From positions 92,031,847 through 92,095,846 of the forward strand of contig OY740774.1 of the NCBI GenBank assembly GCA_963513935.1: a stretch of 64,000 bases of DNA. The letters are read 5' to 3'. The stretch is from Aphrophora alni. Its lineage: Eukaryota; Arthropoda; Insecta; Hemiptera; Aphrophoridae. The position numbers and the translations under genes are program-made. Under the pieces are notes generated by a model that did not search any database, was not told the origin of the DNA, and was given only the letters and a program-made list of their open reading frames with translations. Below are positions 20,277 through 46,834 of the stretch, in pieces (within the stretch, counting starts at the first letter, position 1; each line of letters opens with the position of its first letter).

Positions 20277-22230
20277 GTTACAAAAAACCTATTATCCAGT
20301 GAATAGAAGTTGTTAGGAGGTCTAGCGGTTTTGAAATACTCATAGCAAATCTGATATTTGAATCAAAGCTGCATTGGGCTACCTCCTTTAGGATTAAATT
20401 CTCCTGATACCGATATAACAGGTAAAACGACAAAATCCTCTTATCAGGTGAATATGATTTGATAAGAGGTCTATCTGAATTGAAAACGGAATCATAGTTG
20501 ACATCCACCTCCCTTAACATTATTTTTTCCTAATATTGCGGTAAAATGACAAAATCATGTTATCGGATGAATATGATTTGATAGGAGGTCTTTTTGAATT
20601 ATAAGAATTTTAAACTTAATCACATTTAACATCCAACTCCTTTAAGATTATAATCTCCGTATACTTACGTAAATCGACAATATCCTGATACACGGTGAAC
20701 ATGATGTGATAGGAGGCCAGTAGAGCCCGAATATTAGAGGACAAAAGTGGTGGAGGTTACCACGTGACTTAAGCCCCGCCTATTGAATCTCCTCCTCCAC
20801 TCGTGCCCCACCTCTTGCCCCTCCCCCATCATTATTGCCCCTCACCCTCATATATTGCCCCGCCCCTTGCGCCTCCTCCCTCATTTCATGCCTCTCCAAT
20901 TCCATTTTTGCCCCGCGCCTTTCCTATCTCCCTCCATACATGCTCCGCCTTTTGCCCCCAAATATTCATAGCAACTCTGATAATTGAATCACAGTTATAT
21001 AAACCTCTTTTAACATAATATTCTCCTGATATCTTGAAAACCTACTAAAAACTGTTATCCAGAGAATAGAAGTTGTTAGGAGGTCTATTGGATTTGGAAA
21101 ACTGAAACGCAGTTTACATCCACCTCCTTTAACATTATATTCTCTTGATATTGCGGTAAAACGACAAAATCTTGTTATCAGGTGAATATGATTTAATAGG
21201 AGGTCTATCTGAATTGAAAATGGAATCGTAGTTGACATCCACCTCCTTTAACATTATTTTTTCCTAATATTGCGGTAAAACGACAAAATCCTGTTATCGG
21301 GTGAATATGATTTGATAGGAGGTCCATTTGAATTAAAAACTGAATTACATTTAACAACCACCTCCTTTCAGATTATATTCTCCGTATACTTACTTAAATC
21401 GACAAAATCCTGATACCAGGTGAATATGATGTGATAGGAGGTCAGTAGAGCCAGAATATTTGAGGACAACAGTTGTGGAGGTGACCACGTGACTTCAGCC
21501 CCGCCCCCTGAATCTCTACCTCCATTCTTGCCCCGCCTCTTGCCCCTCCCCCTAATCTATTTCCCCGCCCTCCCCTCCCCCCTCAATTCTGACCCCTTCA
21601 ATTCCATGTTTGCCGTCCACTTGCCTATCCCCCTCCGATCAAGCCCCGCCTTTAGCCCCTCACCAAATATTCATGGCAACTATGATAATTGAATCACAAT
21701 TGCATTGATCTCTTTTAACATAATATTCTCCTGATACCTTGAAAACTTACAAAAAAAACGGTTATCCAGTGAATAGAAGTTGTTAGGTGGTTTATTGGGA
21801 TTGGAAAACTGAAACGCAGTTTACATCCATCTCCTTTAACATTATATGCTCCTAATACTGCGGTAAAACGACAAAATCCTGTTACCAAGTGAATATTATT
21901 TGATAGTAGGTCTATTTGAATTGAAATTGAACTACAGTTAACATCCACCTCCTTTAAGATTATATTCTCTGAAAACTGCGGTAAAACGACCAAATCCTGT
22001 TATCAGGTGAATATGATTTGATAGGAGGTCTATGTAGACATCTACCTCCTTCAACATTAAATTCTCCTGATCCCTTGAAAAGGTACAAAAAAACCTGCTA
22101 TCCAGTGAATAGAAGTTGTTAGGAGGTCGATTGGTATCGAAATATTCAGGACAACTCTGATGATTGAATCACAGGTTCATTGACTTATTTTAACATTACA
22201 TTCTCCTGATACTTTCTTTTTAAATGTAAG
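20277..22230. repeat. Higher-order minisatellite with embedded C-rich blocks
   Basis: A monomer of roughly 116-120 bases recurs with divergence; it contains GATAGGAGGTCTAT, CATCCACCTCCTTTAACAT and GCGGTAAAACGACAAAATCC (for example near 20425, 20542, 21158, 21274, 21396, 21861, 21979). A second landmark, AAATATTCATAGCAACTCTGA, recurs near 20331, 20961, 21665 and 22139, so monomers are grouped in larger units of about 0.5-0.7 kb. Two larger units carry C-rich blocks (about 20756-20960 and 21478-21663) full of GCCCCTCCC and GCCCCGCC. Small frames here are by-products of the repeat. Confidence 0.85.
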
Positions 22231-22699
22231 AAAGTGCTGTACTCTACCAGTTATCAAACTAAGCAATAACTTTCTAAACATATATGTTTTACAGTGGAGA
22301 AAGTATTGGTATCTACTAAAAATAAAACTGCAATCTAAATATTTAAATAAAAATATTTATTAATGTAACAAATTTGTAAATACAGTAGATATAAAAAATG
22401 TTGTTTAAAATAACAATGAAAAATAAAATATATAAAATTACATTATTTTTAAAATTCACTTTTTCACCACTTTTTAGTCTTTTTTAATACAACACTCAAA
22501 AAACACTTGGACTTTTTCTATTGATGTCATCGATGTTGAATAATGTGCTGCCATAATGAATCTGCAACAAAATTATTAAAATAACAATTTTAAAACTCTA
22601 TAATTAATTGTCAAACATTTTTTGAAATATAAACTTCTTTAGGCGCACCAGTAACAGAATACTATTAGTATGGATGGGTTAAATGGGAATTAAGAGTCA

Positions 22700-23000
22700 C
22701 AAACTATCGAATACATTAATACTAAAACTAAAAATCAATCAAAAATATTGCACAAACTTTCTCATACATAAATACTAAAACTAATGATCTGTCAAAATAT
22801 TGAACAATCTTTCTCTCACATAAATACTAAAACTAATGATCTGTCAAAATATTCTCAAACTTCACCATACATAAATACTGAAACTAATGATCCGTGAAAA
22901 ATATTGCATAAACTTTCTCTTACATAAATAATATAACTAATCATCAGCCACAAATATTGCAGAAAGTGTCTCATACATAAATACTAAAACTCATAATCAG
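22700..23000. repeat. Minisatellite of about 53-bp unit
   Basis: CATAAATACTAAAACTAATG recurs near 22717, 22768, 22820, 22871, 22924 and 22977, with intervening CAAAATATTGCACAAACTTTCTC. About six degenerate copies. Confidence 0.85.
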
Positions 23001-26000
23001 TATGAAAGATAACTATGCTCCTAAAGATAGAAACTTCGAAACATTAGATATAAAAAATTATGTGTGTAAACAATACTCTTTATGTTATATTTATTTGATA
23101 AATTTATATCATTGGGTTAACATTCTATCTTTGATAACTACGAACTTCTCACAAGGGTGTTGTGGGACCTATATTCTCACAAGTGTAGCTATGTTAGACT
23201 GTGTGTGGAGGAGGGGGGGGGGTTGTAAATCAAAAATCAAAAAACGTAAGATAAGTTAAATGTAAATATTTGTAAGTATTAATGGCATAAAACATGACCC
23301 TTATAATAAACATTCACCTTAAACATGTAAAGTTACTTTATAACTTATCTGTATAGAGGTTGTACATAAAATATCTATAGAGCTGTCCGTAAATAACAAG
23401 CATAGTTAATGTCAAAGTTGGTGTAATTACAAGATTTGTCACTCATTAAATGAATTGTTCTTAACAGTAAAGAAAGATGTAATTCAAACTTGAAAAATCA
23501 TATTTATTGTACAGAGCCTTCAATTTTATTAGTTAATATATCAGTTACATTGTAGTAAGTAAGAAAATCACGTAATTCAATAGAAGTTTGTACATTAGAA
23601 TATTATAATAACAAGAACAATAATTTACCTAGAGCAAGAAGATTTAATGTAGTTTTTTTGTGTTGTAAAAAAAAACACAAACAAAAAAATTGTCTGTATA
23701 AAAATTATATAATGAATTTACGTTCATTGTTTTGCAAAACTACAAAATATTCTTTTATTTTACAAAGTTATTCGCTTTAAAACTCATAATTATACTTGAA
23801 GTACGACTATCGACGATAAGACAATAAACTGTTTTATAATAGAAAACATTTATATATATATATATATATTGTTTATTTATTGTGAAAACATAATTAGGAT
23901 TAAAAAAATATTTTGATATACCCTTTAATGGTGCAATTTCTTTACAGTGAAATATGAAATTATACATAATTTTGGTTATGTTTGTTTTTCAAATAATCAT
24001 GATTTTAATTAAAATATATATTAATAGTGAACAATATTACAAAAACGTTAAAAACGATCATTAAAAATAATAAATTCTTAAATTTTAAATTACATTGTTT
24101 ATAAACTAAAAATTAAGTTGTAAGAAAATTCGTATGATGTATTATTATAACTGATATTAAACATTCACTTAAAAAAATAGGAAAATAAGAAAGGAAATTG
24201 TCTTGGAAACAAATAAGAGCGGTTATATTTGTTGGAAGTAACAGAACCAGAATTTGTGAACCGTAAAGAGCTGCAAAGTACTGTGATTGTGTAAGAAATG
24301 TGAGAAGATATTGAATTCAATACAGTCAGTATAGAAACTGCTTATATCGCAATTCCGTCTTGGTTCCATTTATCCAAAGCCAAACAGCTTAACTACACGA
24401 CTTTACGTTTCTAAGTTTACAACCTTCACGATATAACTTAAATTGATATATAATTATGTAAATGAATGATATCAAATGATGTAAAGGACTTAAAAGTATT
24501 TTTAAGTATATTATAGTGTATACTAATAACTATATTCTGTTACTAATGTAAGTTGATATAATTTTAAATATATTAACAACCAATCAATGATTTTTTTTAA
24601 ATTCAAGCAAAAAGTAATTTCATCTGATGTACATTTCAGAACTTAATATTGTAATGTAACTTCAGAACTTTGTCTTGTTTTACATTTAACGTATTTTTTG
24701 AGATAAACTAATTTTTAAACAACTACTGTATTTAACTTTTCATCCACCTATAATCTTTACTTTGTTTATATAAAACAGAATACAATTGTTTACTGAATTG
24801 TCCTCGAAACAAGTAAGGGCGGTGATATCTCTACGTAACATCTTCAAAGTATTTGAGCAATAAAATCGTTCGTCAACGACTGAGATATAAGGGGAAATTG
24901 TTAATAAAATGGATTTAGTGAAAAAGATTTTGAAATTGTCTCCATTCCATCTCTGACCCAAAATTTAAAAATCCTAATATTACAAACACATAGCTCAATA
25001 ACGGGAGTAATTTCAGTTGTTATTATTATATCGTCATTTGCATTTAAGTTTGGTAATTTACGATAGTTTGTAATGTTTCTAATTTTTGGCCCAGTAGTAG
25101 TTAATCCTACAATTTTTCGTTTTAAAATATAAAACAGATTTTTCTATTTCCAGTCTGTATGTAATTTACAACACTACTAAATCCCTTTTAACACTTTTAA
25201 AATACAACTTAAGGATAAAAAATTGAGGCAAATAATAAATCCTGAAAACACGGTTCAATCAACGAACCTTCATTATGTTTAATAAAGTCAGATTATTTAT
25301 AGTATAGTGTTAAATGGACATGCCTATTTTTTTATCTTAATTTGTTTGTTGTTGTTTTTTTTACCAAGAAATATTTTACTTAATTTTAGTTTTATAAAAT
25401 GGAGTATTCTGGATAATGGAACTTACGATTTAGGATGCATATTGGAATTGGAATTAAAAAATATATTTATAAGTAAATGATCCAAGGTGTTGGGATTAAT
25501 TAAAATTTAAAAATATATATATTTATTATTCAATTAGGTAACCGAATGATTCATATCTTCTATATATAGAAGCTTGTTTCGTTTTACATATTTACGTTAG
25601 TTGATGGAAACATAAATATTCAATGAAAAGTAAATTACACAATAAACAACATTAACATTTGGTAAGTTGTAATTAAAAATACTCGGAAATACTGGCTTCT
25701 TTGCTAGTTTGTATTTTTATTTTTCGTATTTTACAACGAACATAGAAACCTTTAGATTTTAAAATGTGTATGACTCTAATGTTCGTAACATTTTTAAATG
25801 TAAATGGTTTTTTGGTAAATTGATATATGAGAATAGCTACGAAACACACCAACTAATTAAGAGGTGTTTATCCAAAGCCTAATTTAGTACTATTAACATA
25901 ATGTTAATCCACTTAAAAATAATGTATTAAAATATTACTGCATCGAAGTACCACATCTCAAGGTGAGGTAACATAAATGCAAGTGTGATTTCAAAGTTTA

Positions 26001-34101: not shown

Positions 34102-34107
34102 ACTAAT
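34102..34107. repeat. Left target-site duplication ACTAAT
   Basis: Six bases directly abutting the left terminus of the palindrome; the same six bases abut the right terminus (46829-46834) in the same orientation. Confidence 0.8.
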
Positions 34108-34137
34108 AGTAGAGATGGGGACGGTTGGGCACAAACA

Positions 34138-34509
34138 TGGTGGGGGTACCCCCACCCCTCCCCCTTGGCCCCTCCCCCTTTGCCCCTCCCCTCCCCCTCC
34201 CCTCCCCCTCCTCCCTTTGCCCCTCCCCCTTTGCCCCTCCCCTTTAGGCCCCTTCCCTTCCCCCATTGGTCCCCCCACCCCTCCCTCTGCCCCTCCCCCT
34301 TTGCCCCTACCCCTTTGCCCCTCCCCTTTAGGCCCCTTCCCTTCCCCCATTGGTCCCCCCACCCCTCCCCCTGCCCCTTCCCTGTAGGCCCCTCCCCTTT
34401 AGGCCCCTTCCCTTCCCCCATTGGTCCCCCCACCTCCTCCCACCCCTCCCCCTGCCCCTCCCCTGTAGGCCCCTTCCCTTCCCCCATTGGTCCCCCCACC
34501 AGTGACGTA
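34138..34509. repeat. C-rich terminal minisatellite, left arm
   Basis: About four degenerate copies of a block built from CCCCTCCCCTTTAGGCCCC, TTCCCTTCCCCCATTGG and TCCCCCCACC, beginning with the self-complementary GGTGGGGGTACCCCCACC. The strand is almost pure pyrimidine apart from GG pairs. Pro-rich frames on one strand and Gly-rich frames on the other are by-products. Strand-asymmetric C/G tracts of this kind can form G-quadruplexes on the complementary strand. Confidence 0.9.
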
Positions 34510-34520
34510 TTGTTGTCGAG

Positions 34521-34545
34521 ACACACACACACACACACACACACA
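34521..34545. repeat. (AC)n microsatellite followed by paired GACGTCA sites, left arm
   Basis: About 12 AC units, then TGACGTCA and a second GACGTCA about 18 bases on; GACGTCA is the CRE-type bZIP half-palindrome. Mirror copy in the right arm near 46391-46415. Confidence 0.85.
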
Positions 34546-34585
34546 TGACGTCATACTCACACGACGTCATACACTTAACTTTTTT

Positions 34586-34657
34586 AATACCGGTGGGATT
34601 CGAACCTGTGAAGTTTGGATTCGAAGGCGGACACGCTACCGACTGAGCTATCGTGCA
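34586..34657 (-). pseudogene. tRNA-like module (A box and B box), left arm
   Basis: On the minus strand the sequence carries TAGCTCAGTCGG, matching the RNA polymerase III A box, and about 35 bases later GGTTCGAATCC, an exact B box. Spacing is that of a tRNA. The acceptor and T stems pair poorly and no T-run terminator follows, so it is probably not a working tRNA but a tRNA-derived promoter, such as a SINE head or a tRNA relic. Its inverted copy is at 46279-46350. Confidence 0.6.
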
Positions 34658-35020
34658 TAGTATTACAAGTCGGATAATTAACGCAGTATATAAGCCGCCA
34701 TGTTGTAACCGCAATAATGTGTTATATATATATATATAATGTGTTAAGATAGTTAACCTAACCTATAAGTGTCCTACAGTTGCCCATCCACAGCCTATCA
34801 GCTGTTACAATAATGTGTCATTATATAATGTGGTAAGATAGTTAACCTAAAGATTCCCACTTTTGCCCATCCACAGCCAATCAGCTGTTACAATAATGTG
34901 TTATATATTTATATAATGTGTTAAGATAGTTAACCTAACCTCATAGTATTACAAGTCGGATATTTAACGCAGTATATAAGCCGCCATGTTGTAACCGAAC
35001 GCCAGAACATTTCGTAGAAG

Positions 35021-35111
35021 TTCGGACACGAACCCCTTACCGTAAGACTTACCGAGTTTTTCGCGACCGCGAAAAACTCGCGTACGTCTTACGGTATGGG
35101 TTCTGAGTCGT
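35021..35111. repeat. GC-rich cruciform-forming inverted repeat, left arm
   Basis: A near-palindrome centred at about 35067 with stem CGAGTTTTTCGCG / CGCGAAAAACTCG and almost no loop, extended outwards by CTTACCGTAAGAC / GTCTTACGGTATGGG. It is GC-rich, single-copy per arm, and lies inside otherwise AT-rich repeats, so it stands out. Mirror copy at 45825-45915. A structured replication origin or protein-binding site is possible but not shown. Confidence 0.8.
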
Positions 35112-38100
35112 ACCTCTAGGTTACTCTGACAACAAATAGTAGTGTCCAAATTGTAATGTGCTTGTGTTAACCTAACCTATAAGTTTTCCTACTTTTGCCT
35201 ATGTTCACCACAGCCTACTTGAATCAGCTGGTACAATTACTGTGTTATATATTTATATAATGTGTTATATATGTATATAATGTGTTAAGATAGTTAACCT
35301 AACCTATAAGTTTCCCACTTTTGCCTATGTTCACCACAGCCTACTTGTAACAGCTGGTACAATAATGTGTTATATATATATATATATGTAATGTGTTATA
35401 TATTTATATAATGTGTTATATATGTATATAATGTGTTAAGATAGTTAATCTAACCTATGTATGAAAAGTTTTTACCTATGTTCACCACAGCCTACTTGTA
35501 ACAGTTGGTACAATTAATGTGTTATATATTTATATAATGTGTTATATATGTATATAATGTGTTAAGATAGTTAACCTAACCTATAAGTTTCCTACTATTG
35601 CCTATGTTCACCACAGCCTACTTGTAACAGCTGGTACAATAATGTGTTATATATTTATATAATGTGTTATATATGTATATAATGTATTAAGATAGTTAAT
35701 CCAACCTATGTATGAAAAGTTTTTACCTATGTTCACCACAGCCTACTTGTAACAGTTGGTACAATCAATGTGTATTTATATAATGTGTTATATATTTATA
35801 TAATGTGTTGAGATAGTTAACCTAACCTATAAGTTTCCTACTTTTGCCTATGTTCACCACAGCCTACTTGAATCAGCTGGTACAATTATTGTGTTATATA
35901 TTTATATAATGTGTTATATATGTATATAATGTGTTAAGATAGTTAACCTAACCTATAAGTTTCCCACTTTTGCCTATGTTCACCACAGCCTACTTGTAAC
36001 AGCTGGTACAATAATGTGTTATATATATGTAATGTGTTATATATTTATATAATGTGTTATATAGTTATATAATGTGTTAAGATAGTTAACCTAACCTAAA
36101 GTTTCCTACTTTTGCCTATGTTTACCACAAGTTTCCTACTTTTGCCCATCCACAGCCAATCAGCTGTTACAATAATGTGTTATATATATATAATGTGTTA
36201 TATATTTATATAATGTGTTATATAATGTGTTAAGATAGTTAACCTAACCTATTAGAGTTTACTACTTTTGCCCACCACGGCCTAGGTACATTTAATGTGT
36301 ATAATGTGTTAAACGTAGTTTCCTCCGTTGTCTACCAGGGTGTAGCACATGTGTTTAAGTATCGTGTTAAAATATTGTTAACCTAGACTTAATTCCTACT
36401 TTTGCCTATTAACCTAACCTATAAGTGTCCTACTTTTACCCATCCACAGCCAATCAGCTGTTACAATAATGTGTTATATAATTATATAATGTGTTAAGAT
36501 AGTTACCCTAAAGTTTCCTACCTTTGCTCATCCACAGCCAATCAGCTGGTACAATTAATGTGTTATATATATATATATAATGTGTTATATATTTATATAA
36601 TGTGTTAAGATAGTTAACCTAACCTATAAGTGTCCTACTTTTACCCATCCACAGCCAATCAGCTGTTACAATAATGTGTTATATATATATATATATAATG
36701 TGTTATATATTTATATAATGTGTTAAGATAGTTAACCTATAAGTGTGATACTTTTACCCATCCACAGCCTATCAGCTGTTACAATAATGTGTTATTATAT
36801 AATGTGTTAAGATAGTTAACCTAAAGTGTCCTACTTTTACCCATCCACAGTCAATCAGCTGGTACAATTAATGTGTTATATATATATATATATAATGTGT
36901 TATATATTTATATAATGTGTTATATAATGTGTTAAGATAGTTAACCTAACCTATAAGTTTCCTACTTTTACCCATCCACAGCCAATCAGCTGTTACAATA
37001 ATGTGTTATATATATATATATATATAATGTGTTATATATTTATATAATGTGTTAAGATAGTTAACCTAACCTATAAGTGTCCTACTTTTACCCATCCACA
37101 GCCAATCAGCTGTTACAATAATGTGTTATATATATATAATGTGTTATATATTTATATAATGTGTTAAGATAGTTAACCTATAAGTGTCCTACTTTTACCC
37201 ATCCACAGCCTATCAGCTGTTACAATAATGTGTTATTATATAATGTGTTAAGATAGTTAACCTAACCTATAAGTTTCCTACCTTTGCCCATCCACAGCCA
37301 ATCAGCTGGTACAATTAATGTGTTATATATATATATATAATGTGTTATATATTTATATAATGTGTTATATAATGTGTTAAGATAGTTAACCTAACCTATA
37401 AGTTTCCTACTTTTACCCATCCACAGCCAATCAGCTGTTACAATAATGTGTTATATATATATATATATATAATGTGTTATATATTTATATAATGTGTTAA
37501 GATAGTTAACCTAACCTATAAGTGTCCTACTTTTACCCATCCACAGCCAATCAGCTGTTACAATAATGTGTTATATATATATATAATGTGTTATATATTT
37601 ATATAATGTGTTAAGATAGTTAACCTAACCTATAAGTGTCCTACTTTTACCCATCCACAGCCAATCAGCTGTTACAATAATGTGTTATATATATATATAA
37701 TGTGTTATATATTTATATAATGTGTTAAGATAGTTAACCTATAAGTGTCCTACTTTTACCCATCCACAGCCTATCAGCTGTTACAATAATGTGTTATTAT
37801 ATAATGTGTTAAGATAGTTAACCTAACCTATAAGTTTCCTACCTTTGCCCATCCACAGCCAATCAGCTGGTACAATTAATGTGTTATATATATATATATA
37901 TAATGTGTTATATATTTATATAATGTGTTATATAATGTGTTAAGATAGTAACCTAACCTAAAGTTTCCTACTTTTACCCATCCACAGCCAATCAGCTGTT
38001 ACAATAATGTGTTATATATATATATAATGTGTTATATATTTATATAATGTGTTAAGATAGTTAACCTAACCTATAAGTGTCCTACTTTTACCCATCCACA

Positions 38101-38419
38101 GCCTATCAGCTGATACAATAATGTGTTATATAATTATATAATGTGTTAAGATAGTTAACCTTACCTATAAGTTTCCTACTTTTACCCATCCACAGCCAAT
38201 CAGCTGGTACAATTAATGTGTTATATATTTTATATAATGTGTTAAGATATAATGTGTTAAGATAGTTAACCTAACCTATAAGTTTCCTACATTTGCCCAT
38301 CCACAGCCTATCAGCTGGTACAATTAATGTGTTATATATAATGTGTTAAGATAGTTAACCTAACCTATAAGTTTCCTACTTTTGCCCATCCACAGCCAAT
38401 CAGCTGTTACAATAATGTG

Positions 38420-38420
<1 letters not shown>

Positions 38421-38463
<43 letters not shown>
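38421..38463. repeat. (TA)n run, left arm, 43 bases
   Basis: The longest TA stretch of the array. The mirror run in the right arm (42479-42517) is 39 bases, one of the few differences between the arms. Confidence 0.9.
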
Positions 38464-38466
<3 letters not shown>

Positions 38467-38716
38467 GTGTTATATATTTATATAATGTGTTAAGATAGTT
38501 AACCTAACCTATTAGAGTTTCCTACTTTTGCCCACCACGGCCTAGGTACATTTAATGTGTATAATCTGTTAAACGTAGTTTCCTCCGTTGTCTACCAGGG
38601 TGTAGCACATGTTTTTATGTATCGTGTTAAAATATTGTTAACCTAGACTTAATTCCTACTTTTGCCTAAACCTATGCTTACCACAGTCCAAACGGGTGTT
38701 AGTCTGGCCACTATTT

Positions 38717-38925
38717 AACCGAACCGAAATTACCAACCGATTTACCAACCAAATCCAACCGATTTACCAACCAAAACCAACCGATTTACCAACCGAAATA
38801 TACTTTTACCAACCGATTTACCAACCACAATATACATTTACCAACCGATTTACCAACCAAAACCAACCGATTTACCAACCAAAACCAACCGATTTACCAA
38901 CCAAAACCAACCGATTTACTGTCTG
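38717..38925. repeat. ACCAACCGATTT minisatellite, left arm
   Basis: About nine copies of a 20-23-base unit with ACCAACC and GATTTACCAACC. It recurs inverted as GGTTGGTAAATCGGTTGG at about 39600-39660, so it brackets the gene at 38979-39388 as a nested inverted repeat. The Thr/Gln/Pro-rich 78-codon frame across it (38696-38932) is a by-product. Confidence 0.9.
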
Positions 38926-38978
38926 GAGTTAATATAAAACCACTAACTCCGCTTACAAAACCATTCCGCGACAACATA

Positions 38979-39377
38979 ATGCTTGTTAAAATAACCGACA
39001 GTTCGGATTGCGAACAAGGGAAGAGCCTCGTAAAGAAGAATATCTGTGGAGTATTTAACAGTTATCTTCGTGGGAAATTTACGGATTTTGTTTCCGCAAG
39101 ACATGGCGTAAAAGTAAAATTACCATTCCCTTTGAATGGAAAGAGACCTATGGCGAAACGTGTATGCAATATTATTGGAGCAGATGGGATGCAAGCCATT
39201 GCAAAGAAATTTAAAAATCCCATTGCAATCCCCTACAAGGTAGAGTTAGCGGATGTTGAGTTGGCTACTCTACAGGAAAAAATGCCCGAAATACTATTGG
39301 CTTCTACCTTATGGATTTGGACATTACACAAGATTTTGTGGGGATCTTTAACAAGCGAGAGATGTGTGAGCATTTAG
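38979..39377 (+). CDS. Unrecognised basic protein of the palindromic element, left copy
   Basis: A 132-codon frame from ATG 38979, starting MLVKITDSSDCEQGKSLVKK; less AT-rich than its surroundings. The frame is open upstream of this ATG, so the N-terminus may be longer. The product is rich in Lys/Arg, with KSLVKKNICGVFNSYLRGKF and NGKRPMAKRVCN segments, suggesting nucleic-acid binding. From about 39293 another frame gives a more protein-like end (with DLDITQDFVGIFNKREM), stops at 39386-39388 and is followed at once by AATAAA. An A6 run at 39277-39282 lies between, so a frameshift, programmed slippage or sequencing error is likely. I cannot name the family; a replication-initiator resemblance is only a guess. 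It reads towards the centre of the palindrome. Confidence 0.6.
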   Translation: MLVKITDSSDCEQGKSLVKKNICGVFNSYLRGKFTDFVSARHGVKVKLPFPLNGKRPMAKRVCNIIGADGMQAIAKKFKNPIAIPYKVELADVELATLQEKMPEILLASTLWIWTLHKILWGSLTSERCVSI

Positions 39378-39389
39378 TACGTCATTAAA

Positions 39390-39395
39390 AATAAA
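39390..39395 (+). terminator. AATAAA poly(A) signal after the element gene, left copy
   Basis: Overlapping AATAAA words immediately after the stop at 39386-39388 in the alternative frame. This position supports that stop, rather than 39375-39377, as the original end of the gene. Confidence 0.5.
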
Positions 39396-39661
39396 TAAAT
39401 GTTTTAAAATAATATTCTTTGTAATTTGTTACCTCTATTCCACCAAAACTCTTTTTAGTAGAGATGAAGATATTTGATGTGACCTTGGAATTGTAGCCGA
39501 AAACGACACGACCCCCCAACCCCCATTTTTCCTTTTTAAATATATAACGTCGTAACGTTTGTTAGGAACCGATTTACCAAACCGTAGATAAAATTACCAA
39601 GATTTGGTTGGTAAATTGTTTGCAAAAAGTATATTTTGGTTGGTAAATCGGTTGGTATTGG

Positions 39662-40434
39662 TTAGGTTAGGTTAGGTTAGGTCTGGTTAGGATAGGTTAG
39701 GATAGGTTAGGTTAGGTTAGGTCTGGTTAGGATAGGTTAGGATAGGTTAGGTTATGTTAGGTTAGGTTAGGATAGGATAGGTTAGGTTAGGTTAGGTTAG
39801 GATAGGTTAGGTTAGGTTAGGATAGGTTATGTTAGGTGAGGTTAGGTTAGGTTAGGATAGGTTAGGTTAGGTTAGGTTTTTAGGAGAATGGTTGTTAGGT
39901 TAAGTTAGGATAGGATAGGTTAGGTTAGGTTAGGTTAGGTTAGGATAGGTTAGTTTAGGTTAGGTCTGGTTAGGATAGGTTAGGTTATGTTAGGTTAGGT
40001 TAGGATAGGATAGGTTAGGTTAGGTTAAGTTAGGATAGGTTAGGTTAGGATAGGTTATGTTAGGTGAGGTTAGGTTAGGTTAGGATAGGTTAGGTTAGGT
40101 TAGGTCTGGTTAGGATAGGTTAGGATAGGTTAGGTTAGGATAGATTAGGTTATGTTAGGTTAGGTTAGGATAGGATAGGTTAGGTTAGGTTAGGTTAGGT
40201 TAGGATAGGTTAGGTTAGGTTAGGATAGGTTATGTTAGTTGAGGTTAGGTTAGATTAGGATAGGTTAGGTTAGGTTAGGTTAGGTTTTTAGGAGAATGGT
40301 TGTTAGGTTAGGTTAGGATAGGATAGGTTAGGTTAGGTTAGGTTAGGATAGGTTAGGTTAGGTTAGGATAGGTTATGTTAGGTTAGGTTAGGTTAGGTTA
40401 GGATAGGTTAGGTTAGGTTAGGTTAGGTTTTTAG
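39662..40434 (+). repeat. TTAGG-type telomere-like array, left arm
   Basis: About 150 five-base units, mostly TTAGG, with variants ATAGG, TCTGG, TTATG and TGAGG. An interrupting TTTTTAGGAGAATGG block occurs near 39877, 40287 and 40428. TTAGG is the telomere repeat of most arthropods. The G-rich strand runs towards the palindrome centre, as a chromosome end would run towards its tip. Confidence 0.93.
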
Positions 40435-40507
40435 GAGAATGGTTGCCACACGCCCGGGAGATGGTAGGGGTGGGGTGGAGGTTGGTAGGCGTGTGGCAAC
40501 CATTCTC
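40435..40507. other. Centre of the palindrome: stem and 33-base G-rich loop
   Basis: GAATGGTTGCCACACGCC (to 40454) pairs with GGCGTGTGGCAACCATTC (from 40488). The loop 40455-40487 is the only non-palindromic sequence of the element and contains GGG, GGGG and GGGG runs plus further GG pairs on the + strand, so it could form a quadruplex. Confidence 0.9.
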
Positions 40508-41281
40508 CTAAAAACCTTACCTAACCTAACCTAACCTATCCTAACCTAACCTAACCTAACCTAACATAACCTATCCTAACCTAACCTAACCTATCCTAAC
40601 CTAACCTAACCTAACCTATCCTATCCTAACCTAACCTAACAACCATTCTCCTAAAAACCTAACCTAACCTAACCTAACCTATCCTAATCTAACCTAACCT
40701 CAACTAACATAACCTATCCTAACCTAACCTAACCTATCCTAACCTAACCTAACCTAACCTAACCTATCCTATCCTAACCTAACCTAACATAACCTAATCT
40801 ATCCTAACCTAACCTATCCTAACCTATCCTAACCAGACCTAACCTAACCTAACCTATCCTAACCTAACCTAACCTCACCTAACATAACCTATCCTAACCT
40901 AACCTATCCTAACTTAACCTAACCTAACCTATCCTATCCTAACCTAACCTAACATAACCTAACCTATCCTAACCAGACCTAACCTAAACTAACCTATCCT
41001 AACCTAACCTAACCTAACCTAACCTATCCTATCCTAACTTAACCTAACAACCATTCTCCTAAAAACCTAACCTAACCTAACCTATCCTAACCTAACCTAA
41101 CCTCACCTAACATAACCTATCCTAACCTAACCTAACCTATCCTAACCTAACCTAACCTAACCTATCCTATCCTAACCTAACCTAACATAACCTAACCTAT
41201 CCTAACCTATCCTAACCAGACCTAACCTAACCTAACCTATCCTAACCTATCCTAACCAGACCTAACCTAACCTAACCTAAC
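40508..41281 (-). repeat. TTAGG-type telomere-like array, right arm (reads CCTAA)
   Basis: Mirror of 39662-40434. With the left array it makes a head-to-head junction, TTAGG towards the centre on one side and CCTAA away from it on the other. Confidence 0.93.
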
Positions 41282-41564
41282 CAATACCAACCGATTTACC
41301 AACCAAAATATACTTTTTGCAAACAATTTACCAACCAAATCTTGGTAATTTTATCTACGGTTTGGTAAATCGGTTCCTAACAAACGTTACGACGTTATAT
41401 ATTTAAAAAGGAAAAATGGGGGTTGGGGGGTCGTGTCGTTTTCGGCTACAATTCCAAGGTCACATCAAATATCTTCATCTCTACTAAAAAGAGTTTTGGT
41501 GGAATAGAGGTAACAAATTACAAAGAATATTATTTTAAAACATTTATTTATTTTTAATGACGTA

Positions 41565-41963
41565 CTAAATGCTCACACATCTCTCGCTTGTTAAAGATCC
41601 CCACAAAATCTTGTGTAATGTCCAAATCCATAAGGTAGAAGCCAATAGTATTTCGGGCATTTTTTCCTGTAGAGTAGCCAACTCAACATCCGCTAACTCT
41701 ACCTTGTAGGGGATTGCAATGGGATTTTTAAATTTCTTTGCAATGGCTTGCATCCCATCTGCTCCAATAATATTGCATACACGTTTCGCCATAGGTCTCT
41801 TTCCATTCAAAGGGAATGGTAATTTTACTTTTACGCCATGTCTTGCGGAAACAAAATCCGTAAATTTCCCACGAAGATAACTGTTAAATACTCCACAGAT
41901 ATTCTTCTTTACGAGGCTCTTCCCTTGTTCGCAATCCGAACTGTCGGTTATTTTAACAAGCAT
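41565..41963 (-). CDS. Unrecognised basic protein of the palindromic element, right copy
   Basis: Identical 132-residue translation to the left copy, on the opposite strand, also reading towards the centre. The alternative-frame end corresponds to 41554 and the A6 run to 41660-41665. That both copies share the same apparent frameshift fits recent copying or gene conversion between arms, or a single consensus error applied to both. Confidence 0.6.
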   Translation of the reverse strand: MLVKITDSSDCEQGKSLVKKNICGVFNSYLRGKFTDFVSARHGVKVKLPFPLNGKRPMAKRVCNIIGADGMQAIAKKFKNPIAIPYKVELADVELATLQEKMPEILLASTLWIWTLHKILWGSLTSERCVSI

Positions 41964-42016
41964 TATGTTGTCGCGGAATGGTTTTGTAAGCGGAGTTAGT
42001 GGTTTTATATTAACTC

Positions 42017-42225
42017 CAGACAGTAAATCGGTTGGTTTTGGTTGGTAAATCGGTTGGTTTTGGTTGGTAAATCGGTTGGTTTTGGTTGGTAAATCGGTTG
42101 GTAAATGTATATTGTGGTTGGTAAATCGGTTGGTAAAAGTATATTTCGGTTGGTAAATCGGTTGGTTTTGGTTGGTAAATCGGTTGGATTTGGTTGGTAA
42201 ATCGGTTGGTAATTTCGGTTCGGTT
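42017..42225. repeat. ACCAACCGATTT minisatellite, right arm
   Basis: Mirror of 38717-38925, seen here as GGTTGGTAAATCGGTTGG units. The inner partner repeat lies at about 41282-41342. Confidence 0.9.
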
Positions 42226-42421
42226 AAATAGTGGCCAGACTAACACCCGTTTGGACTGTGGTAAGCATAGGTTTAGGCAAAAGTAGGAATTAAGTCTAGG
42301 TTAACAATATTTTAACACGATACATAAAAACATGTGCTACACCCTGGTAGACAACGGAGGAAACTACGTTTAACAGATTATACACATTAAATGTACCTAG
42401 GCCGTGGTGGGCAAAAGTAGG

Positions 42422-42475
42422 AAACTCTAATAGGTTAGGTTAACTATCTTAACACATTATATAAATATATAACAC

Positions 42476-42518
<43 letters not shown>

Positions 42519-45500
42519 CACATTATTGTAACAGCTGATTGGCTGTGGATGGGCAAAAGTAGGAAACTTATAGGTTAGGTTAACTATCTTAACACATTAT
42601 ATATAACACATTAATTGTACCAGCTGATAGGCTGTGGATGGGCAAATGTAGGAAACTTATAGGTTAGGTTAACTATCTTAACACATTATATCTTAACACA
42701 TTATATAAAATATATAACACATTAATTGTACCAGCTGATTGGCTGTGGATGGGTAAAAGTAGGAAACTTATAGGTAAGGTTAACTATCTTAACACATTAT
42801 ATAATTATATAACACATTATTGTATCAGCTGATAGGCTGTGGATGGGTAAAAGTAGGACACTTATAGGTTAGGTTAACTATCTTAACACATTATATAAAT
42901 ATATAACACATTATATATATATATAACACATTATTGTAACAGCTGATTGGCTGTGGATGGGTAAAAGTAGGAAACTTTAGGTTAGGTTACTATCTTAACA
43001 CATTATATAACACATTATATAAATATATAACACATTATATATATATATATATAACACATTAATTGTACCAGCTGATTGGCTGTGGATGGGCAAAGGTAGG
43101 AAACTTATAGGTTAGGTTAACTATCTTAACACATTATATAATAACACATTATTGTAACAGCTGATAGGCTGTGGATGGGTAAAAGTAGGACACTTATAGG
43201 TTAACTATCTTAACACATTATATAAATATATAACACATTATATATATATATAACACATTATTGTAACAGCTGATTGGCTGTGGATGGGTAAAAGTAGGAC
43301 ACTTATAGGTTAGGTTAACTATCTTAACACATTATATAAATATATAACACATTATATATATATATAACACATTATTGTAACAGCTGATTGGCTGTGGATG
43401 GGTAAAAGTAGGACACTTATAGGTTAGGTTAACTATCTTAACACATTATATAAATATATAACACATTATATATATATATATATATAACACATTATTGTAA
43501 CAGCTGATTGGCTGTGGATGGGTAAAAGTAGGAAACTTATAGGTTAGGTTAACTATCTTAACACATTATATAACACATTATATAAATATATAACACATTA
43601 TATATATATATAACACATTAATTGTACCAGCTGATTGGCTGTGGATGGGCAAAGGTAGGAAACTTATAGGTTAGGTTAACTATCTTAACACATTATATAA
43701 TAACACATTATTGTAACAGCTGATAGGCTGTGGATGGGTAAAAGTAGGACACTTATAGGTTAACTATCTTAACACATTATATAAATATATAACACATTAT
43801 ATATATATAACACATTATTGTAACAGCTGATTGGCTGTGGATGGGTAAAAGTAGGACACTTATAGGTTAGGTTAACTATCTTAACACATTATATAAATAT
43901 ATAACACATTATATATATATATATATATAACACATTATTGTAACAGCTGATTGGCTGTGGATGGGTAAAAGTAGGAAACTTATAGGTTAGGTTAACTATC
44001 TTAACACATTATATAACACATTATATAAATATATAACACATTATATATATATATATATAACACATTAATTGTACCAGCTGATTGACTGTGGATGGGTAAA
44101 AGTAGGACACTTTAGGTTAACTATCTTAACACATTATATAATAACACATTATTGTAACAGCTGATAGGCTGTGGATGGGTAAAAGTATCACACTTATAGG
44201 TTAACTATCTTAACACATTATATAAATATATAACACATTATATATATATATATATAACACATTATTGTAACAGCTGATTGGCTGTGGATGGGTAAAAGTA
44301 GGACACTTATAGGTTAGGTTAACTATCTTAACACATTATATAAATATATAACACATTATATATATATATATAACACATTAATTGTACCAGCTGATTGGCT
44401 GTGGATGAGCAAAGGTAGGAAACTTTAGGGTAACTATCTTAACACATTATATAATTATATAACACATTATTGTAACAGCTGATTGGCTGTGGATGGGTAA
44501 AAGTAGGACACTTATAGGTTAGGTTAATAGGCAAAAGTAGGAATTAAGTCTAGGTTAACAATATTTTAACACGATACTTAAACACATGTGCTACACCCTG
44601 GTAGACAACGGAGGAAACTACGTTTAACACATTATACACATTAAATGTACCTAGGCCGTGGTGGGCAAAAGTAGTAAACTCTAATAGGTTAGGTTAACTA
44701 TCTTAACACATTATATAACACATTATATAAATATATAACACATTATATATATATAACACATTATTGTAACAGCTGATTGGCTGTGGATGGGCAAAAGTAG
44801 GAAACTTGTGGTAAACATAGGCAAAAGTAGGAAACTTTAGGTTAGGTTAACTATCTTAACACATTATATAACTATATAACACATTATATAAATATATAAC
44901 ACATTACATATATATAACACATTATTGTACCAGCTGTTACAAGTAGGCTGTGGTGAACATAGGCAAAAGTGGGAAACTTATAGGTTAGGTTAACTATCTT
45001 AACACATTATATACATATATAACACATTATATAAATATATAACACAATAATTGTACCAGCTGATTCAAGTAGGCTGTGGTGAACATAGGCAAAAGTAGGA
45101 AACTTATAGGTTAGGTTAACTATCTCAACACATTATATAAATATATAACACATTATATAAATACACATTGATTGTACCAACTGTTACAAGTAGGCTGTGG
45201 TGAACATAGGTAAAAACTTTTCATACATAGGTTGGATTAACTATCTTAATACATTATATACATATATAACACATTATATAAATATATAACACATTATTGT
45301 ACCAGCTGTTACAAGTAGGCTGTGGTGAACATAGGCAATAGTAGGAAACTTATAGGTTAGGTTAACTATCTTAACACATTATATACATATATAACACATT
45401 ATATAAATATATAACACATTAATTGTACCAACTGTTACAAGTAGGCTGTGGTGAACATAGGTAAAAACTTTTCATACATAGGTTAGATTAACTATCTTAA

Positions 45501-46246
45501 CACATTATATACATATATAACACATTATATAAATATATAACACATTACATATATATATATATATAACACATTATTGTACCAGCTGTTACAAGTAGGCTGT
45601 GGTGAACATAGGCAAAAGTGGGAAACTTATAGGTTAGGTTAACTATCTTAACACATTATATACATATATAACACATTATATAAATATATAACACAGTAAT
45701 TGTACCAGCTGATTCAAGTAGGCTGTGGTGAACATAGGCAAAAGTAGGAAAACTTATAGGTTAGGTTAACACAAGCACATTACAATTTGGACACTACTAT
45801 TTGTTGTCAGAGTAACCTAGAGGTACGACTCAGAACCCATACCGTAAGACGTACGCGAGTTTTTCGCGGTCGCGAAAAACTCGGTAAGTCTTACGGTAAG
45901 GGGTTCGTGTCCGAACTTCTACGAAATGTTCTGGCGTTCGGTTACAACATGGCGGCTTATATACTGCGTTAAATATCCGACTTGTAATACTATGAGGTTA
46001 GGTTAACTATCTTAACACATTATATAAATATATAACACATTATTGTAACAGCTGATTGGCTGTGGATGGGCAAAAGTGGGAATCTTTAGGTTAACTATCT
46101 TACCACATTATATAATGACACATTATTGTAACAGCTGATAGGCTGTGGATGGGCAACTGTAGGACACTTATAGGTTAGGTTAACTATCTTAACACATTAT
46201 ATATATATATATAACACATTATTGCGGTTACAACATGGCGGCTTAT
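42422..46246. repeat. AT-rich minisatellite array, right arm
   Basis: Mirror of 34690-38520, with the same order of unit variants. Conservation of unit order, and not only of unit sequence, shows the arms were copied as a block. Confidence 0.92.
45825..45915. repeat. GC-rich cruciform-forming inverted repeat, right arm
   Basis: Mirror of 35021-35111, with the TTTTTCGCG / CGCGAAAAA core. Confidence 0.8.
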
Positions 46247-46278
46247 ATACTGCGTTAATTATCCGACTTGTAATACTA

Positions 46279-46350
46279 TGCACGATAGCTCAGTCGGTAG
46301 CGTGTCCGCCTTCGAATCCAAACTTCACAGGTTCGAATCCCACCGGTATT
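46279..46350 (+). pseudogene. tRNA-like module (A box and B box), right arm
   Basis: TAGCTCAGTCGG (A box) and GGTTCGAATCC (B box) on the + strand, spaced as in a tRNA. Stems pair poorly, so it is probably a tRNA-derived promoter relic. If active, it would transcribe outward, through the GACGTCA sites and the (TG)n run towards the right terminus. The 128-codon frame over it (46222-46608) joins this to the repeats and is not a gene. Confidence 0.6.
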
Positions 46351-46426
46351 AAAAAAGTTAAGTGTATGACGTCGTGTGAGTATGACGTCATGTGTGTGTG
46401 TGTGTGTGTGTGTGTCTCGACAACAA

Positions 46427-46798
46427 TACGTCACTGGTGGGGGGACCAATGGGGGAAGGGAAGGGGCCTACAGGGGAGGGGCAGGGGGAGGGGTGGGAGG
46501 AGGTGGGGGGACCAATGGGGGAAGGGAAGGGGCCTAAAGGGGAGGGGCCTACAGGGAAGGGGCAGGGGGAGGGGTGGGGGGACCAATGGGGGAAGGGAAG
46601 GGGCCTAAAGGGGAGGGGCAAAGGGGTAGGGGCAAAGGGGGAGGGGCAGAGGGAGGGGTGGGGGGACCAATGGGGGAAGGGAAGGGGCCTAAAGGGGAGG
46701 GGCAAAGGGGGAGGGGCAAAGGGAGGAGGGGGAGGGGAGGGGGAGGGGAGGGGCAAAGGGGGAGGGGCCAAGGGGGAGGGGTGGGGGTACCCCCACCA
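46427..46798. repeat. G-rich terminal minisatellite, right arm
   Basis: Mirror of 34138-34509; G-rich on the + strand here. Gly/Glu/Lys-rich frames of up to 159 codons across it are repeat artefacts. Confidence 0.9.
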
Positions 46799-46828
46799 TG
46801 TTTGTGCCCAACCGTCCCCATCTCTACT

Positions 46829-46834
46829 ACTAAT
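46829..46834. repeat. Right target-site duplication ACTAAT
   Basis: Same six bases and orientation as 34102-34107. The inferred empty site reads GAAATGG-ACTAAT-TCTACTGGG. Confidence 0.8.

What the first reader, a model, noticed from the sequence alone, without database searches (positions are those of the whole stretch)
34108..46828. A 12.7-kb nearly perfect palindrome that behaves like a single mobile element
Arms of about 6.34 kb are reverse complements around a 33-base loop, with a net length difference of only six bases. Foldback elements of this arm length, with a protein gene and telomere-like DNA in each arm, do not fit a class I can name. The flanks are unrelated and a short direct repeat brackets the whole, so it looks integrated.
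Basis: partly seen in the sequence, partly recalled or inferred. Interest (0 to 1): 0.92.

Follow-up and report, generated by a model that had tools for sequence, protein, structure and literature searches.

The report
Mirror-image hitchhiker of Polinton transposons
This 12.7-kb stretch is one copy of a mobile DNA family whose two halves are almost exact mirror images and whose ends match those of virus-like Polinton transposons in the same, likely insect, genome; it likely spreads with their enzymes and would keep its halves identical by folding back on itself while being copied.

Summary
Window 34108-46828 is a palindrome: arms of 6347 and 6341 bp around a 33-nt loop, differing by one substitution and two TA-run indels. 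It is an integrated, multicopy mobile element. Exact 6-bp target duplications flank 16 of the 18 copies in which both ends were found.

The ends identify it. Its terminal ~0.6 kb is also the terminus of coding Polinton/Maverick elements in the same assembly (protein-primed PolB, integrase, packaging ATPase, double-jelly-roll capsid). The palindrome carries none of those genes. Its arm ORF is a gutted copy of a 797-aa gene that sister palindromes keep open in both arms; in the one read in full it is bracketed by telomere-like arrays. No library searched names that protein.

In all 8 palindromes read, each end's nearest relative among 28 ends is its own partner, and 26 of 34 variable sites in short arm segments are mirrored in every copy. 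I infer insertion and copying in trans by Polinton enzymes, with arms homogenised through a fold-back intermediate. Chromosomal gene conversion remains a rival. My literature searches turned up no palindromic Polinton-ended family.

The parts
34102..34107 (.). left target-site duplication ACTAAT
   Evidence: read; exact match to 46829-46834
46829..46834 (.). right target-site duplication ACTAAT
   Evidence: read
34108..40454 (+). left arm of the palindrome
40488..46828 (-). right arm of the palindrome
40455..40487 (.). 33-nt unpaired loop, the part that is not mirrored; it varies between copies
40425..40517 (.). centre hairpin (30-bp stem plus loop), shared by the 8 palindromes read
   Evidence: folded alone as DNA: -35.7 kcal/mol, z -13
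34108..34720 (+). Polinton-type terminus: AGTAGAG..., CCCCT minisatellite, then a conserved block
   Evidence: shared with the coding copies
46216..46828 (-). mirror copy of the Polinton-type terminus
34720..38510 (+). AATGTGTTATATA minisatellite arrays, longer than in copy I
42432..46216 (-). mirror copy of the minisatellite arrays
38730..38920 (+). ACCAACCGATTT repeat block, also in the long TIR of PolB-less coding copies
42022..42212 (-). mirror copy of the ACCAACC block
38979..39377 (+). gutted piece of the 797-aa gene (132-aa reading frame from its first ATG)
41565..41963 (-). mirror copy of the gene fragment
39660..40429 (+). degenerate TTAGG array, G-strand pointing to the centre
40513..41282 (-). 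mirror copy of the TTAGG array

Best explanation
The 12.7-kb palindrome is one copy of a multicopy family of integrated palindromic elements with the termini and 6-bp target duplications of Polintons in the same genome, and it is likely copied and inserted in trans by Polinton polymerase and integrase, its arms predicted to be kept identical by copying each other through a fold-back form. Shown: the palindrome, the multicopy family, the 6-bp duplications, termini shared with coding Polintons, one common centre in the 8 palindromes read, ends that match their own partner better than any other of the 28 ends compared, and a 797-aa gene that is open in both arms of sister palindromes but gutted here. 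Inferred: insertion by the Polinton integrase (at least 130 places in the genome), copying by the Polinton protein-primed PolB, and homogenisation while a displaced strand is folded back on itself, with mismatch repair or end-copying in the hairpin; the unpaired loop would escape this. Untested: what the 797-aa protein does. The window copy, having lost that gene, would depend on relatives for everything.
For: Same ends: the window's terminal block matches the termini of coding copies B, C, D, J, K, M and N (87.5% over 604 bp to N and 91.1% over the first 1315 bp to C). Kin genes: PolB (DNA_pol_B_2 3.6e-43), rve integrase (3.6e-9; chromodomain match below its cut-off), Pox_A32 ATPase (3e-8), DJR capsid (8.7e-111), PLA2-like (7.5e-15). 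N holds relatives of these in one 24.6-kb element with its own 6-bp duplication. Exact 6-bp duplications: 13 of 14 copies with both ends, then 3 of 4 more. Open helper genes: 130 integrase places scored, 128 without a stop; 37 PolB places, 35 without a stop; both lists are capped. Arm copying: the partner is the nearest relative for 26 of 28 ends, for all 16 palindrome ends among them; left and right ends form sister pairs in 13 of 14 copies. P6 arms are identical over 5694 bp with no gap. Of 34 variable columns, 26 are mirrored in every copy. The 8 palindromes share one centre, and P6 carries a mirrored change in the stem. Palindrome ends interleave with coding ends on the tree.
Against: No replication or integration assay and no reads. 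One palindrome, P9, has clearly diverged arms: 118 of 4446 inner positions, 92 of them in two bins with large array indels, and in one short segment its left arm is closer to another copy than to its own partner. The outer 500 bp diverge more than the inner arm in the other palindromes, which a simple 'identical at birth' model does not predict unless the CCCCT minisatellite mutates fast. Both ends of N are nearer to H than to each other by distance, though N's ends pair on the tree. Copies G and Q5 lack an exact duplication. For K, Q3 and Q2b one end was not found. The palindrome holds a gene absent from the coding copies read, so it is not a simple deletion of a Polinton.
Confidence: 0.62

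Rival explanations
1. The element inserts with Polinton enzymes, but its arms are kept alike afterwards by gene conversion between the two arms inside the chromosome.
For: Inner arms of 7 of 8 palindromes differ at 24/33318 positions, inner TIRs of five coding copies at 19/4000, although the outer 500 bp are about equally diverged (66/3898 in 8 palindromes, 38/2412 in the five coding copies). Pooled by me; bins at the inner TIR edge or at the loop left out. A long palindrome could extrude and convert from its centre outward.
Against: P9 is the exception, 118/4446. The ends of coding copies B, C, D and J, 11-14 kb apart and not in a palindrome, are also sister pairs, so homogenisation exists without a chromosomal palindrome. 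The least diverged copies (window, P6) are uniform to the very ends.
Confidence: 0.25
2. The palindrome is an element in its own right that replicates with the 797-aa protein and has only taken over Polinton ends for integration.
For: The protein has 32 relatives, several in insect records, up to 61% identity over 98%, and is absent from the coding Polintons read. In copy I the gene is bracketed by CCTAA and TTAGG arrays in the polarity of a linear molecule's two ends. 21 inverted pairs keep 797 codons open in both arms. Conserved DxDITQDF, RxKIYNKF and RLEATIYN stretches recall replication initiators of the Rep_trans kind (recalled).
Against: No family, PDB or profile hit explains the protein. 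Palindromes that lost the gene, this one included, have also multiplied, though kin could supply it in trans.
Confidence: 0.2
3. An ordinary foldback or cut-and-paste transposon (Galileo/Foldback, hAT) with long terminal repeats.
For: Long internally repetitive inverted arms; the TAGAGATGGG terminus resembles hAT ends (recalled).
Against: Duplications are 6 bp, not 7-8 bp (the 7-8 bp lengths are recalled). The ends are those of PolB/integrase elements.
Confidence: 0.03
4. Assembly artefact: a fold-back read or mis-join at the loop.
For: Palindromes are a known product of fold-back reads (recalled).
Against: Left and right flanks differ and were each found once. Seven other loci have the same centre with different flanks, and six of those seven have exact 6-bp duplications (G fails).
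Confidence: 0.01

Closest known systems
Polinton/Maverick elements (polintoviruses, adintovirus-like)
   Same: 6-bp target duplication, AG-rich terminus with inverted repeats, integrase- and PolB-coding kin with the same ends in the same genome. PMC8097293 (passages read) gives 6-bp TSDs and (AGT)2 or (AG)3 end motifs for vertebrate Mavericks; here the end is AGTAGAG.
   Different: The window copy codes for none of the Polinton genes found in its kin, is a palindrome from end to end, and carries a fragment of a gene not found in the coding copies read.
Galileo / Foldback elements of Drosophila
   Same: Long, internally repetitive inverted arms (PMC3573991, abstract start in the listing).
   Different: Different kin and a 6-bp duplication; P-type transposase was not looked for.
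Snap-back defective genomes of AAV
   Same: Double-stranded DNA genomes in a snap-back configuration (PMC8235507, abstract start in the listing).
   Different: Those are defective virion DNAs. Here the palindrome is inherited, multicopy and has one common centre.
Bidnaviridae (PolB-bearing insect viruses)
   Same: PolB gene and terminal inverted repeats derived from a Polinton (PMC4061559, passages).
   Different: Two single-stranded segments packed in separate capsids; no palindrome mentioned in the passages read.
Terminons of bdelloid rotifers
   Same: Large mobile elements associated with telomeric repeats (PMC6431247, passages).
   Different: Retroelements that attach to chromosome ends; here TTAGG-like arrays are internal to a DNA element.

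Membership tests
Polinton/Maverick | 6-bp target-site duplication | tested here: met
   window ACTAAT; 16 of 18 copies with both ends found
Polinton/Maverick | terminal inverted repeats with AG-type end motif | tested here: met
   AGTAGAG at both ends; close to, not identical with, the vertebrate (AGT)2 and (AG)3 motifs
Polinton/Maverick | protein-primed PolB, integrase, packaging ATPase and capsid genes in the element itself | tested here: not met
   apart from low-complexity frames the window copy has only the gene fragment, without a Pfam hit; the genes are in kin with the same ends
Polinton/Maverick | moved by Polinton integrase and copied by PolB | not testable with these tools
   inferred from shared ends and duplication length
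Foldback/Galileo (P superfamily) | long internally repetitive inverted arms | tested here: met
Foldback/Galileo (P superfamily) | 7-bp duplication (recalled) | tested here: not met
   duplications are 6 bp
Foldback/Galileo (P superfamily) | kin coding P-type transposase | not tested
   no search made for it
hAT | 8-bp duplication (recalled) | tested here: not met
   no adjacent match longer than 6 bp
Rep_trans-type replication initiator (the 797-aa protein) | match to the Pfam family model | tested here: not met
   no Pfam family at E 10 for the protein; PF02486 not among the 9 families hit at 0.1 by 28 relatives; a whole-genome search with PF02486 did not complete

The most novel reading that the evidence does not exclude
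A distinct class of inherited mirror-image replicons: each arm carries a conserved gene capped by telomere-like arrays, the unit turns over as a self-complementary hairpin that makes its arms identical every round, and it wears Polinton ends so that Polinton integrase inserts it. The window copy is a gene-less parasite of that parasite.
Probability: 0.35. Interest if true: 0.88.

Novelty: new variant of a known kind. Interest (0 to 1): 0.74.

Why it matters
Polintons are expected to copy themselves by protein priming (PMC8097293), while their particles had not been observed (abstract starts). A family of palindromes whose arms stay alike while the unpaired loop drifts would be a molecular record of that copying step and makes it testable. 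It would also be a satellite that exploits Polintons as they exploit the host, with an insect gene family of unknown function attached, and would explain how palindromes of more than 10 kb can arise and spread in an animal genome.

Tried and rejected
Telomere fusion or chromosome-end origin: the TTAGG arrays do point to the centre as two fused ends would, but 16 contig-end stretches of 700 bases (8 contigs; 2 are all N) show no telomere array, so the host's telomere repeat is untested and no fusion is claimed.

A strictly split Polinton (PolB on one segment, capsid and integrase on another): suggested because 0 of 37 PolB places lie within 30 kb of any of 105 capsid places and because copies B and D against C, J, K and M are complementary. 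Dropped as a general rule because N holds both sets. Only three PolB copies were read, and both lists are capped (N's capsid, 77% alike, is not in the list of 105).

A tRNA-like box in the terminal block, seen by eye, was not supported by Rfam or ARAGORN (ARAGORN ran with the bacterial code).

797-aa protein: nothing convincing in Pfam, NCBIfam, PHROGs, PADLOC or PDB and no relative in viral contigs, plasmids or prokaryote genomes. Hits of single members (PHROG best 0.00049, Pfam best 0.0028) were judged chance. Papers opened but not used further: PMC11071296 (passages), PMC2836005 (passages).

Rows dropped before counts: one search used 88 of the 150 rows (the other 62 run into the tail of the truncated form). 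K was left out of TSD counts (no right terminus); M was fetched at one end only. Pooled counts leave out the last bin of each copy, for C and J the last two bins and for G the last three (220 mismatches of 1119 around its doubled centre); N is not pooled (12/498 in its outer bin), nor is P9 in the figure for 7 palindromes (given apart).

Full report
OBSERVATION. The palindrome is real and the coordinates are right: left arm 34108-40454, loop 40455-40487, right arm 40488-46828. Within the element the arms differ by one substitution next to the loop and by two TA-run indels (2 and 4 bases). The flanks are unrelated; joined across one ACTAAT they match the genome only as the two stretches that border this element. 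ACTAAT stands immediately outside both ends. The window is G000:C9:92031847-92095846, in a 1.70-Gb assembly of 388 contigs. It is likely a hemipteran insect, because the named relatives of its capsid protein among the 120 listed are in leafhoppers (Homalodisca, Macrosteles).

A FAMILY, NOT A SINGLETON. A search with the terminal 453 bases gave 45 matches from 40 scored of 1153 first-look candidates, many as inverted pairs 4-16 kb apart. I fetched both sides of eleven such copies (window, B-K), of N and of three further palindromes, and tried the ends of six more. Exact 6-bp duplications flank 13 of 14 copies with both ends found (G fails, K dropped for lack of a right terminus), and 3 of 4 more (Q5 fails; Q3 and Q2b showed one end only). 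Each of the 16 duplications found is six bases long and adjacent to AGTAGAG.

WHOSE ENDS THEY ARE. [quoted passage not shown] Copies B and D carry a full PolB (DNA_pol_B_2) and a BIR/RING protein (in B in pieces) instead. N, at C3:94145915-94170475, holds PolB and relatives of the other genes in 24.6 kb with its own duplication GAAGTA. These are Polinton/Maverick elements. Their duplication length and end motif agree with, or come close to, those reported for vertebrate Mavericks (PMC8097293, passages read). Lower bounds in this genome: 37 PolB places (35 without a stop), 105 capsid places at 99-100% (104 without a stop), 130 integrase places at 98-100% (128 without a stop). The searches are capped.

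THE PALINDROMES. Eight palindromes were read: window, E, F, G, I, P9, P3, P6. All eight have the same centre hairpin; its 33-nt loop differs between copies. So they descend from one inversion and multiplied as palindromes, rather than arising anew each time. A search with 734 bases of the core gave 40 scored of 704 candidates; those that lie close together do so as inverted pairs, apart from a C4 cluster of three. G has the centre twice. E contains a helicase-like reading frame that I take for a Helitron piece (name recalled).

THE GENE. The 132-aa frame in the window arm is what is left of a 797-aa gene, open in both arms of copy I (L022:2502-4895). Of 150 places scored with the fragment (881 candidates), I tabulated the 88 whose match stops where the window copy's private tail begins: 56 have exactly 797 open codons, 32 of 33 neighbouring pairs are inverted, and in 21 inverted pairs both arms are open. 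The other 62 rows extend into the tail of the truncated form, so the gutted form has also multiplied. The protein has 32 relatives, among them proteins from psyllid, mealybug, locust and aphid records and one from a leafhopper-symbiont MAG that is probably host DNA. No library searched names it. Conserved stretches are DxDITQDF, VGxDCLTW, RxKIYNKFxCQxTSPG and GITRLEATIYN. I recall a likeness to Rep_trans initiators, but the family model does not hit. In I the gene sits between a CCTAA array on its outer side and a TTAGG array on its inner side, the polarity of the two ends of a linear molecule; that is an observation in one copy, not a demonstrated origin.

ARMS COPY EACH OTHER. For the terminal 700 bp, the partner end is the nearest of all others for 26 of 28 ends; the two failures are both ends of N, and all 16 palindrome ends pass. 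Left and right ends form sister pairs in 13 of 14 copies (H fails). P6 arms are identical over 5694 bp, without a gap. In three short segments of 7-8 palindromes, 34 columns vary; 26 are mirrored in every copy, 8 are not, mostly because of P9, whose left arm is in one segment closer to another copy than to its partner. Between copies the arms differ freely: the window arm and the I arm differ by kilobases of array and gene. So something transfers changes from one arm to the other. The ends of the non-palindromic copies B, C, D and J are sister pairs too, which is expected if it happens during protein-primed copying.

A RESULT THAT DOES NOT FIT SIMPLY. By 500-bp bins (edge bins left out, see Tried and rejected) the outer bin differs at 66/3898 positions in 8 palindromes and 38/2412 in 5 coding copies, while the inner arm differs at 24/33318 in 7 palindromes and 19/4000 in the coding copies. 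P9 stands apart with 118/4446, 92 of them in two bins with large array indels. The inner arms of most palindromes are thus more uniform than their ends. This can mean extra conversion in the chromosome, or a fast-mutating CCCCT minisatellite at the ends; I cannot tell which. P9 shows that arms can drift apart.

MECHANISM. Shown: integrated, multicopy, shared ends, one centre, mirrored change. Inferred: the free form is a linear DNA with Polinton ends, copied by PolB in trans. The displaced strand is self-complementary and folds on itself; mismatch repair or end-copying in that hairpin makes the arms alike while the loop is left alone. Integrase then inserts it with a 6-bp stagger. The ends of palindromes and coding copies interleave on one tree, as expected if they share enzymes and exchange ends.

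KNOWN OR NEW. The ends are Polinton; the gene content is not, so I do not file it as a Polinton but as a Polinton-ended palindromic element. My searches for palindromic, foldback or non-autonomous Polintons listed no paper that, by its title, abstract start or the passages I read, describes one; most listed papers were not opened, and the library lacks most subscription papers, so this is not proof of novelty. Snap-back genomes of AAV (PMC8235507, abstract start in a listing) show that mirror-image viral DNA exists.

LIMITS. No reads, no other individuals, no structure prediction, capped counts, host unnamed. The gene fragment varies less between copies than its flanks (4/312 against 30/479 columns, Fisher p 0.0005), which may reflect recent descent from intact genes rather than present function.

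Noticed in passing
window 20381-22030 and 22698-23001: Two other tandem arrays (about 119-bp and 53-bp units; GC 0.38 at 20-22 kb, about 0.26 in most of the window outside the palindrome). Relation to the palindrome not examined.
   Followed up: no
L013:4885-5307, L030:1861-2283: Polinton copies carry a 141-aa BIR plus RING (inhibitor-of-apoptosis-like) protein.
   Followed up: partly
L028:2843-3430: A phospholipase A2-like domain (PF08398, known from parvovirus capsids as recalled) in the Polinton gene set.
   Followed up: no
C, J, K, M against B, D: Two kinds of Polinton derivative: PolB-less (capsid and integrase kept) and PolB-keeping (capsid and integrase lost); 0 of 37 PolB places within 30 kb of 105 capsid places. 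Possible mutual dependence.
   Followed up: partly
L019/L020 (copy G); C4:113967587-113975276: Palindromes with the centre hairpin or core repeated more than once.
   Followed up: partly
L060/L070 and L061/L071 (copy Q5): Two ends of different subtype and no matching duplication: possibly a recombinant between two elements.
   Followed up: no
P0142, P0144, P0148, P0149 (Planococcus citri): Relatives of the 797-aa protein with near-consecutive LOC numbers on contigs of the same length, possibly clustered copies.
   Followed up: no
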